Part shown: positions 26,770 through 29,438 of the stretch, piece after piece
Layout of the letters: every line of letters begins with the position of its first letter
How positions within the stretch are numbered: the stretch's first letter is position 1
DNA from: a candidate division BRC1 bacterium HGW-BRC1-1
GTDB lineage: Bacteria; Sumerlaeota; Sumerlaeia; Sumerlaeales; Sumerlaeaceae
Direction: 5' to 3'
DNA: 43,747 nt
Assembly: GCA_002842095.1 (NCBI GenBank)
Contig: PHCB01000026.1
Location: forward strand, 1-43,747
Made by a program: the position numbers and the translations under genes
Notes under the pieces: generated by a model
Database searches by the model: none
What the model saw: the letters and a program-made list of their open reading frames with translations, nothing else
What the model was told of the DNA's origin: nothing

Positions 26770-27732
26770 ATGGATGCGGTGAAAATATCGCCCGTCCGTC
26801 CAACGTTCTGGCATGAGATAAAGCGTCAACGAAACGCCTATTTTTTCATTGCGCCGTTTTTCACCGTCTTTCTGCTCTTCATGGTTTTTCCCATTGGCTA
26901 CTCTGCGGCCCTCAGCCTCACACGCTGGAACGGCATCGTTGAGGCGCAGTTTGTGGGATTGGACCATTATCGCCGTGCGATGGGGGATAACAACTTCCAT
27001 CGGGCACTGTTGAACACGCTTGTTTTCTCCGCTCTCACGGTGACCATTTCCGTGGTGGTGGGGCTGACACTGGCGTTGTTTCTTAACTCGGTTCGCTTTT
27101 TCCAACGCTTCTTCCGCAGCGTCTTTTTCATCCCGTCGGTGGTGTCGTTGGTCGTGGTGGCGCTGCTGTGGAAGATGATCCTGAACAGCGAAGTGGGCAT
27201 GTTCAACGAAGCGGTGCACGGGTTTGGTGTGTTCATGCAGTGGATCGGATTCAAGACCCCCGAGTGGACCCGCCACCAATACCGCTTCCTGGACAGCTCG
27301 CACCATTTCGTGCCGCTGATTACCATGACGTTAGTCAACGTGTGGGGCGTGGTGGGGTTCAATACTGTCATTTTTCTCGCGGGCTTGCAGGGCATCCCGT
27401 CCACCATGTACGAAGTGGCTCACATGGATGGTGCCACCTGGCGGCAGGACCTGCGTTATGTAACGCTGCCCATGTTGCGCCCCACGATGTTCTTTGTGGT
27501 GCTCATCACCACCATCGATTCGCTGCAGGTGTTTGTGCTGCCGAACGTTATGAATCGCGGCGCGGCTTCCACCATGACCGTGGTGTATTACCTGTTCCAG
27601 AATGCGTTCGAGTTTTACCGCATGGGTTACGCGTCTGCCATCGCGTACGTGCTTTTCGCGCTTACGTTAATCTTCAGCATCATCATTCGTTTGGTGATGG
27701 GTCGCCGGGGTCGGGCGGAAGATTTTCTATGA
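26770..27732 (+). CDS. Sugar-type ABC transporter permease, MalF/UgpA-like (orphan)
   Basis: A 320-residue inner-membrane permease with six hydrophobic segments and the EAA loop EVAHMDGATWRQDLRYVTLPMLRP. This is the MalF/UgpA subfamily that imports sugars or glycerol-phosphate with a MalG-type partner, a binding protein and a MalK ATPase. None of these partners is in the window: no MalG-like second permease, no binding protein, and the only ATPase (32235-33080) is of the SsuB type. The start lies one base after the M20 stop. Its last 50 bases overlap the 3' end of the convergent small gene at 27683-28063. An incomplete operon or a permease recruited by the peptidase are both possible. Confidence 0.85.
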   Translation: MDAVKISPVRPTFWHEIKRQRNAYFFIAPFFTVFLLFMVFPIGYSAALSLTRWNGIVEAQFVGLDHYRRAMGDNNFHRALLNTLVFSALTVTISVVVGLTLALFLNSVRFFQRFFRSVFFIPSVVSLVVVALLWKMILNSEVGMFNEAVHGFGVFMQWIGFKTPEWTRHQYRFLDSSHHFVPLITMTLVNVWGVVGFNTVIFLAGLQGIPSTMYEVAHMDGATWRQDLRYVTLPMLRPTMFFVVLITTIDSLQVFVLPNVMNRGAASTMTVVYYLFQNAFEFYRMGYASAIAYVLFALTLIFSIIIRLVMGRRGRAEDFL

Positions 27733-28063
27733 CCGGCGGTTCGTGAACGGGATCCAGGTAGAAGACCAGGCTGTGGGCACCCTGACTGTAAAAGATAGTC
27801 ACCATGCCCGTGACACCCGCAATGTTGAAGGGCATCTCGTAATTGTCGTTCGTGTGAAGCATGGTCAGTTGGGCGCCATCGGTTAGCTGATGCACGATGG
27901 CTTCGGTGTCGTGAAAGGTGAGGTTCGGCTCGGCGAGGGGGGGCTGGAGTTTCCGCCCGATACGGATGCAGGGCGGGTTGCCGGCGAGAAACAAAACGCT
28001 CGAGGCACCGCGCTCGGCGGCATCGCCAAGGATTTCGGCCAGGGGTGAGAGTGGAATGCTCAT
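27683..28063 (-). CDS. Small protein resembling the PilT/T4P ATPase N-terminal domain
   Basis: A 126-residue protein. Residues 5-70 (LAEILGDAAERGASSVLFLAGNPPCIRIGRKLQPP...DTEAIVHQL) match the pattern of the small N-terminal domain of PilT/PilB-type ATPases (GAS-x-L-x-x-GxPPxxRIxGxL). The Walker A ATPase core that normally follows is absent, so it is a stand-alone or truncated domain. The remainder (YEMPFNIAGVTGMVTIFYSQGAHSLVFYLDP) is a beta-rich tail. It overlaps the end of the permease gene by 50 bases in convergent orientation. The ATG at 28063 is preferred; no clear ribosome site. Its role is not known; a link to type IV pili would be guesswork. Confidence 0.55.
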   Translation of the reverse strand: MSIPLSPLAEILGDAAERGASSVLFLAGNPPCIRIGRKLQPPLAEPNLTFHDTEAIVHQLTDGAQLTMLHTNDNYEMPFNIAGVTGMVTIFYSQGAHSLVFYLDPVHEPPVIENLPPDPGDPSPNE

Positions 28064-28112: not shown

Positions 28113-28268
28113 AAAAAAGAAGCGCGGGGAAAAGTGCGTGATATTCGAGCCTTCGATTACACGGAATCCCGAATAAGTCTTCCGTATCGGAGGCTATCGC
28201 CGAGCCGAAACGGGAAAGACCGAGAAGCTATTTCTTGCTGCCCGAACCTGCGCTTTCCCCGCGCTTTC
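28113..28268 (-). ncRNA. Predicted rod-shaped small RNA (6S-like fold), U-tract terminated
   Basis: Minus-strand transcript candidate of about 155 nt in the spacer between the metallophosphoesterase and the PilT-N-like gene. A perfect 13-bp closing stem pairs 28254-28266 with 28120-28132. A 7-bp stem follows (28240-28246 with 28144-28150, one G-U pair), then a large internal loop. Next is a 9-bp stem (28177-28185 with 28210-28220, two bulged bases), a 4-bp stem (28187-28190 with 28205-28208) and a GGC-GATA-GCC tip at 28192-28201. Directly after the closing stem comes C and six T, as in an intrinsic terminator. A closing stem, a central bubble wider on the 3' side and an apical arm recall 6S RNA, but I see no 6S sequence signature. 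A leader RNA for the downstream gene is the alternative. Confidence 0.55.
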
Positions 28269-28361: not shown

Positions 28362-29438
28362 TTACAAAATCAATCCGGCCGGGGTGAGGTCGAAGATCGT
28401 TACTTCGGCGGGGGCTTTGTACCGCAGCGGCACACCGCTGGTGCCGATCCCGTTGTTGATGTAGACCGGAAACGCCGGACCGTCGACCCATCCGCTGGCG
28501 TACTTCCCGCCGTAGAGCGACGGGATGACCGGCGTGCCCAGGCGCGGAATGCGGACCTGTCCGCCGTGGGTGTGCCCGGAAATCATGAGGTCCACGCGGT
28601 GACCCGCTGAAAGAAATGCTGCGTCTTCGGCCACGTCGGGATTGTGCGAGAGCAACAATCGCGGCATCGCATCGGGCAGTCCACCCAACGCGTCGTCGGC
28701 GGAAACGCGGTCTTCCCAGTAGTCGCCCACGCCCGCCACAGCGAGACCCAGCGGGCTATCCGCGCGCCGCGATGTGATGAGGCTGCGCTCGGGAGACACC
28801 ACCACATGACGGTTATCGACCATCGGGATTCCCGCGCTTTCCAACGCTGCACGCATGCGCCCGGCGCCCTCCCACCAGTCGTGGTTACCCAGCACGGCGA
28901 ACACGCCGATGCTAGGACGAAGCGTGGCGAAGGCGCGCGCCACCGGGTCGATGTAGCGCGGCGAGTTAATGACGTAATCGCCCGTGAGCAAAACCAGATC
29001 CGGTTTCGTTGCGTTCACCTGCGCCATAATTGCGGCGATGTATTCGGCCGGCAACCACGGGCCATGATGCACGTCGGTTATCTGCGCCACACGCAGTCCA
29101 TCCAGTGAAGGCGGCAGGCCCGCGACGGGCAATATGATGCGCGTGAAATGCACCCGAGCCGGACCGTTCACGCGCTGGTAGGCGCGCTCCGCGGAAGGCG
29201 AATTGACCACCGCCTGCGCCATGGCACGCGACACAGCCAGCTTAAATTTGCGCGATTTTTTAACCGTCCCGGTTTCGCTGCGGAAGCGGCGCTCGGTCAT
29301 GCGGTTACTGAGCCAGTCAAACATCGGGCGCAGACTTTCGAAGTCGGGCGAATCCAGCGCGGCCTGGTGGGCTTCGTGCAGTTCGTTGGCGTGCACCGTA
29401 CGCTGCACGGAATGGGACGAGATTTTCAGATGTGGCAT
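28362..29438 (-). CDS. Metallophosphoesterase, YkuE/LpxG-like
   Basis: A 358-residue calcineurin-fold phosphoesterase with all five metal-site motifs: ITDVHHG (D-x-H), LTGDYV (GD), GNHDWW (GNH), LLSHNPD (H) and SGHTHGGQVRIPRLG (GHTH). The YkuE-like subgroup includes membrane-associated UDP-diacylglucosamine pyrophosphatases and related phospholipases. Unlike most of these it has no N-terminal transmembrane helix; the first 100 residues are a charged extension of unknown function. It begins 32 bases after hisF ends on the same strand, so it may be read in the same transcript. Catalytic substrate not deducible. Confidence 0.87.
   Translation of the reverse strand: MPHLKISSHSVQRTVHANELHEAHQAALDSPDFESLRPMFDWLSNRMTERRFRSETGTVKKSRKFKLAVSRAMAQAVVNSPSAERAYQRVNGPARVHFTRIILPVAGLPPSLDGLRVAQITDVHHGPWLPAEYIAAIMAQVNATKPDLVLLTGDYVINSPRYIDPVARAFATLRPSIGVFAVLGNHDWWEGAGRMRAALESAGIPMVDNRHVVVSPERSLITSRRADSPLGLAVAGVGDYWEDRVSADDALGGLPDAMPRLLLSHNPDVAEDAAFLSAGHRVDLMISGHTHGGQVRIPRLGTPVIPSLYGGKYASGWVDGPAFPVYINNGIGTSGVPLRYKAPAEVTIFDLTPAGLIL

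What the first reader, a model, noticed from the sequence alone, without database searches (positions are those of the whole stretch)
28113..28268. Rod-shaped RNA with a U-tract: a candidate new 6S-like or leader RNA
A perfect 13-bp closing stem, further stems, a GATA-type tip and an immediate CTTTTTT tract on the minus strand form a complete small-RNA layout. The spacer has no gene. A central bubble with more bases on the 3' side is the shape of 6S RNA, but the sequence is not recognisably 6S.
Basis: partly seen in the sequence, partly recalled or inferred. Interest (0 to 1): 0.6.

Follow-up and report, generated by a model that had tools for sequence, protein, structure and literature searches.

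The report
New structured small RNA of Sumerlaeaceae
The window holds a real, previously uncatalogued structured RNA of about 150 bases, found once in each of seven genomes (six genera) of an uncultivated bacterial family; it is not 6S RNA, and it usually sits just ahead of a small gene that encodes only the front domain of a pilus motor protein.

Summary
The stem, tip and U-tract are all present on the minus strand at the stated coordinates, and the fold is far better than chance (-66 kcal/mol, z -4.3, 0 of 200 shuffles). No Rfam family matches. Comparison shows a real RNA: six other genomes of the same family (Sumerlaeaceae) carry one homologue each, 49% identical on average against 16-27% in the flanks. 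Covariation is strong (17 of 28 consensus pairs compensatory; alignment fold z -8.2). A model trained without genome G003 still found its copy. All seven genomes with the RNA also have a separate canonical 6S, and six have a separate SRP RNA match, so it is neither. It is not a rod: a long closing stem (P1) encloses the nearly invariant strand GGWUCGGGNAGCA and a branched interior. In six of seven genomes a gene for a lone PilT N-terminal domain starts 27-73 nt downstream; in G003 the RNA persists with an unrelated gene there. I favour a stand-alone, trans-acting RNA, co-transcribed by read-through with its neighbour (raiA/ModT precedent); a cis-acting leader of the PilT-N gene is almost as likely. 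Transcription was not tested. No copy was found in 32 other genomes of the phylum or about 350 others.

The parts
28113..28268 (-). structured small RNA (model match 28120-28266 plus U-tract)
   Evidence: fold z -4.3; covariance model match 98.3 bits, E 2e-18, one copy in genome
28254..28266 (-). P1 closing stem, 5' strand AAGCGCGGGGAAA
   Evidence: perfect 13 bp with 28132-28120; 5 of 7 modelled P1 pairs have two-sided compensatory changes among homologues
28120..28132 (-). P1 closing stem, 3' strand TTTCCCCGCGCTT
   Evidence: as above
28235..28248 (-). conserved strand GGTTCGGGCAGCAA
   Evidence: GG, UCGGG and AGCA invariant in 7 homologues
28240..28246 (-). P2 5' strand UUCGGGC, can pair with GCUCGAA at 28150-28144
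   Evidence: five or six pairs possible in all 7 homologues; sixth position C-G, A-U, or U-U in one
28144..28150 (-). P2 3' strand GCUCGAA; its UCGA can also form the competing hairpin P4
   Evidence: P4 read from sequence
28176..28221 (-). P3 conserved central hairpin with GAUA tip, UUA after its base
   Evidence: compensatory changes in all three segments of P3
28113..28118 (-). U-tract directly after P1 (terminator-like)
   Evidence: sequence; at least 7 T in the 12 nt after P1 in 5 of 7 homologues
27683..28063 (-). downstream gene: lone PilT N-terminal domain, 126 aa
   Evidence: orthologues in 5 other family genomes, each downstream of the RNA; profile matches PilT N-domain, 5fl3 at 2.6e-10
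28362..29438 (-). upstream gene: metallophosphoesterase; not conserved next to the RNA
   Evidence: Pfam PF00149; different upstream neighbours in relatives

Best explanation
It is a family-specific, single-copy structured RNA of about 130-155 nt. SHOWN (by comparison): a closing stem P1 of about 12-18 bp brings the two ends together, usually followed at once by a U-rich stretch. Inside lie the nearly invariant strand GGWUCGGGNAGCA, a covarying hairpin P3 with a conserved tip, and a 3' element that can pair either with the invariant strand (P2) or locally (P4). INFERRED: it is transcribed as its own RNA, ended or processed at P1, and acts in trans, probably as an RNA-protein particle or target-binding RNA. 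The UCGGGNAGCA strand would be the working part, exposed or hidden by the P2/P4 alternative. The downstream PilT-N gene, whose start lies 27-73 nt after P1, would be expressed by read-through of the same transcription unit.
For: One copy in each of 7 of 8 family genomes at 98-123 bits, next best match 26 bits. G003 was found by a model built without it (55.8 bits, E 4.8e-10), and there the downstream gene is unrelated, so the RNA outlives the gene. Covariation: 11 of 19 modelled pairs with two-sided changes against 3.8 +/- 1.5 in shuffles, 0 of 500; it drops when the partners are slid. RNAalifold: 17 of 28 pairs compensatory, z -8.2. RNA about 49% identical, flanks 16-27%, no shared open frame. 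Upstream neighbours differ and are divergent in five of seven, so the RNA needs a promoter of its own there. raiA/ModT RNA is a precedent: first taken for a cis element because of its location, then shown to act in trans (PMC11706538).
Against: No transcript data. In 6 of 7 genomes the same gene follows within 27-73 nt while upstream neighbours change, which is also what a cis leader would show. No sigma-70 promoter was found by scan, and TTGA-like boxes upstream have irregular spacing. The U-tract is poor in G003 and G005. The P2/P4 switch is read from sequence and thermodynamics only (P2 state 0-3.4 kcal/mol above the minimum).
Confidence: 0.5

Rival explanations
1. Cis-acting structured leader (attenuator or riboswitch-like) of the PilT-N gene: P1 plus U-tract is a terminator whose formation depends on the P2/P4 choice.
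For: Same gene 27-73 nt downstream in 6 of 7 genomes, too close for an obvious separate promoter; downstream gene constant while upstream genes vary; alternative pairings of the 3' element.
Against: RNA retained in G003 with an unrelated downstream gene; one copy per genome; an antiterminator partner for P1 was not looked for systematically and none was seen; U-tract poor in two genomes.
Confidence: 0.4
2. Second or divergent 6S RNA regulating RNA polymerase.
For: Similar size, long closing stem, downstream gene possibly in the same unit (as in E. coli ssrS-ygfA, from general knowledge).
Against: No RF00013 match to E = 10; separate 6S in all seven genomes; this RNA's model does not match the 6S loci; branched fold without a large central bubble between two rods.
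Confidence: 0.04
3. Only a terminator or decaying sequence of the upstream metallophosphoesterase gene, without further function.
For: It lies about 93 nt after that gene's stop codon and ends in a stem with a U-tract.
Against: Interior conserved in sequence, strong covariation, and other upstream genes, mostly on the opposite strand, in relatives.
Confidence: 0.02

Closest known systems
raiA motif RNA / ModT (C. difficile, PMC11706538)
   Same: Conserved structured RNA often beside one gene, suspected as riboswitch, persists where the neighbour differs
   Different: No Rfam match between them; different lineage; function here untested
6S RNA (RF00013)
   Same: Similar length, closing stem, possible read-through into a downstream gene
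   Different: No sequence or structure match; separate 6S in every one of these genomes; branched interior
Ribosomal protein L20 leader (RF00558)
   Same: Weak chance-level match of the terminator stem, 16.6 bits against a cut-off of 58.7
   Different: Far below cut-off, E 1.2; no L20 gene downstream
Bacterial small SRP RNA (RF00169)
   Same: Small structured RNA
   Different: Separate SRP RNA match in six of the seven genomes, five above the cut-off

Membership tests
6S RNA (RF00013) | Match to the covariance model | tested here: not met
   No hit to E = 10 at the locus; the genome's 6S is on contig C3 at 69.8 bits
6S RNA (RF00013) | Rod with one large central bubble mimicking an open promoter | tested here: not met
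   Consensus and single-sequence folds are branched inside P1; predicted, not probed
6S RNA (RF00013) | Binds RNA polymerase and templates pRNA | not testable with these tools
   needs biochemistry
Any Rfam 15 family | Match at gathering score | tested here: not met
   None for the window at this locus; relatives checked to E = 1 and G003 to E = 10 without a match that covers the RNA
Bacterial SRP RNA (RF00169) | Match to the model | tested here: not met
   None at the locus; separate SRP RNA at C8:152709-152806, 45 bits
Cis-regulatory leader | Consistently upstream of the regulated gene | tested here: inconclusive
   6 of 7 upstream of the PilT-N gene, G003 not
Cis-regulatory leader | Mutually exclusive structures that change expression | tested here: inconclusive
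   P2 state lies 0-3.4 kcal/mol above the minimum; no expression data
Stand-alone sRNA | Own transcript with defined ends | not testable with these tools
   U-tract in most homologues; no clear sigma-70 promoter; RNA-seq needed

The most novel reading that the evidence does not exclude
A new class of bistable regulatory RNA, in which an invariant strand (UCGGGNAGCA) is alternately sequestered and exposed, working with a lone PilT N-terminal-domain protein as an RNA-protein pair that tunes type IV pilus retraction.
Probability: 0.08. Interest if true: 0.8.

Novelty: new variant of a known kind. Interest (0 to 1): 0.52.

Why it matters
It is a well-supported RNA family with no Rfam entry, from a candidate phylum of which, according to PMC8092238 (2021), no pure culture had been obtained. 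It comes with a covariance model, a near-invariant motif and a family-specific neighbouring gene. That makes direct tests possible, for example a search of existing metatranscriptomes for a discrete transcript. It may also show how a lineage adds a house-keeping-like RNA beside 6S and SRP RNA.

Tried and rejected
6S membership and SRP RNA were tested and rejected. Homologues outside the family: DNA search gave only short chance matches; models R1 and R2 gave nothing above 26 bits elsewhere. Conserved small ORF: none. Sigma-70 promoter scan: nothing above chance. The CRISPR array upstream in G004 is not near the RNA in other genomes, so a CRISPR-linked RNA was dropped. Pairing of the invariant strand with the downstream mRNA was looked at by eye in a few genomes only and was not consistent. 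The papers searched held no report of this RNA.

Full report
OBSERVATION. The minus strand carries a perfect 13-bp stem (28266-28254 with 28132-28120), an immediate CUUUUUU (28119-28113) and a GGC-GAUA-GCC tip (28201-28192). The stretch folds at -66 kcal/mol, z -4.3 against dinucleotide shuffles, none of 200 as good. The fold is branched rather than rod-shaped. Rfam 15 gives no match, with only chance-level hits when relaxed to E = 10.

NOT THE 6S. The same genome (34 contigs, 3.77 Mb; the window is contig C7) carries a canonical 6S on C3 at 69.8 bits. So does every one of the seven family genomes that have the new RNA, at 65-86 bits. The model of the new RNA does not match the 6S or SRP loci tested. 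A separate SRP RNA match is present in six of the seven, five of them above the cut-off.

HOMOLOGUES. The downstream gene, a 126-aa protein, has orthologues in five other genomes of the family. Upstream of each lies an RNA of the same layout, with GGWUCGGGNAGCA, a GAYN-type tip hairpin and a conserved UUA after the hairpin. A core covariance model from six sequences then found a seventh copy in G003, which lacks that gene, at 55.8 bits. A full-length model found one copy each in seven of eight family genomes at 98-123 bits and nothing above 26 bits in the rest of the phylum. Nothing outside the family reached E = 0.01 in a set of 386 genomes (scored there with stricter filters that can lose weak matches). 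The eighth family genome is 66% complete. The seven genomes belong to six genera. The family is identified as Sumerlaeaceae because contig G002:C33 has the length (56,180) of a record titled Candidatus Sumerlaeaceae; this is an inference.

STRUCTURE. On the structural alignment, 11 of 19 pairs show two-sided changes against 3.8 +/- 1.5 in shuffles, 82.7% of cells pair against 72.8%, and sliding the partners lowers this to 40-52%. That alignment was fitted to the model, so it leans towards it. RNAalifold on the same alignment predicts P1 and P3, with 17 of 28 pairs compensatory. Its energy is -23.6 against -4.5 +/- 2.3 in 300 column shuffles. The RNA is conserved (49% mean pairwise identity; 58% in a 60-nt core) against 27% and 16% upstream and 27% downstream, and no reading frame is shared. 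The invariant strand can pair with a 3' element in all seven (UCGGGM with KCUCGA or GCCUGA). This state lies 0 to 3.4 kcal/mol above the minimum; the same 3' element otherwise forms a local hairpin. This is suggestive of a switch, not proof.

CONTEXT. Upstream neighbours vary: a metallophosphoesterase (this genome), divergent aminotransferases (G001, G007), divergent FtsW/RodA genes (G002, G005), a divergent C39-like peptidase gene (G003), and CRISPR-like repeats about 1 kb away (G004). Downstream, six of seven have the PilT-N gene starting 27-73 nt after P1. That protein matches only the N-terminal domain of PilT (5fl3, 2.6e-10) and is itself restricted to this family (174-196 bits; all others at most 43). 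G003 still has full-length T2SSE/PilT-type ATPases, so the absence of the small gene there is not a loss of the whole ATPase family.

MECHANISM. Two readings remain close. A trans-acting RNA is favoured (0.5) by persistence in G003, single copy, a closing stem around the whole domain, and the raiA/ModT precedent, where location suggested a riboswitch but experiments showed trans action (PMC11706538). A cis leader (0.4) is favoured by the short, conserved distance to one gene while upstream genes change. Expression of the gene by read-through fits both. No promoter of sigma-70 type was found. TTGA-like boxes occur upstream of the homologues, but at irregular spacing.

VERDICT. It is rated a new variant of a known kind because structured bacterial RNAs of unknown function are a known kind, while this family itself matches no Rfam entry. 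Function is inferred, not shown.

Noticed in passing
window 27683-28063 (-): A stand-alone PilT N-terminal domain protein, restricted to this bacterial family and, wherever found, next to the RNA; possibly a modulator of pilus ATPases.
   Followed up: partly
L001 1501-1681 (G000:C3:283721-283901): Canonical 6S RNA of this genome at 69.8 bits; 6S copies also in six other family genomes.
   Followed up: yes
L024 3092-3255 / L111 2999-3326: CRISPR-like repeats about 1 kb upstream of the RNA in G004 only.
   Followed up: partly
L023, L024, L025 against L022, L026, L027, L058: The 3' part of the RNA comes in two forms: a CUUAGGUC/GGCCUGAG-type hairpin in one group, a CGUAAAGUCGA...UCGA-type element in the other.
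   Followed up: partly
genome G003: No small SRP RNA match was found in G003 although it is 92% complete; may be an assembly gap or a divergent SRP RNA.
   Followed up: no
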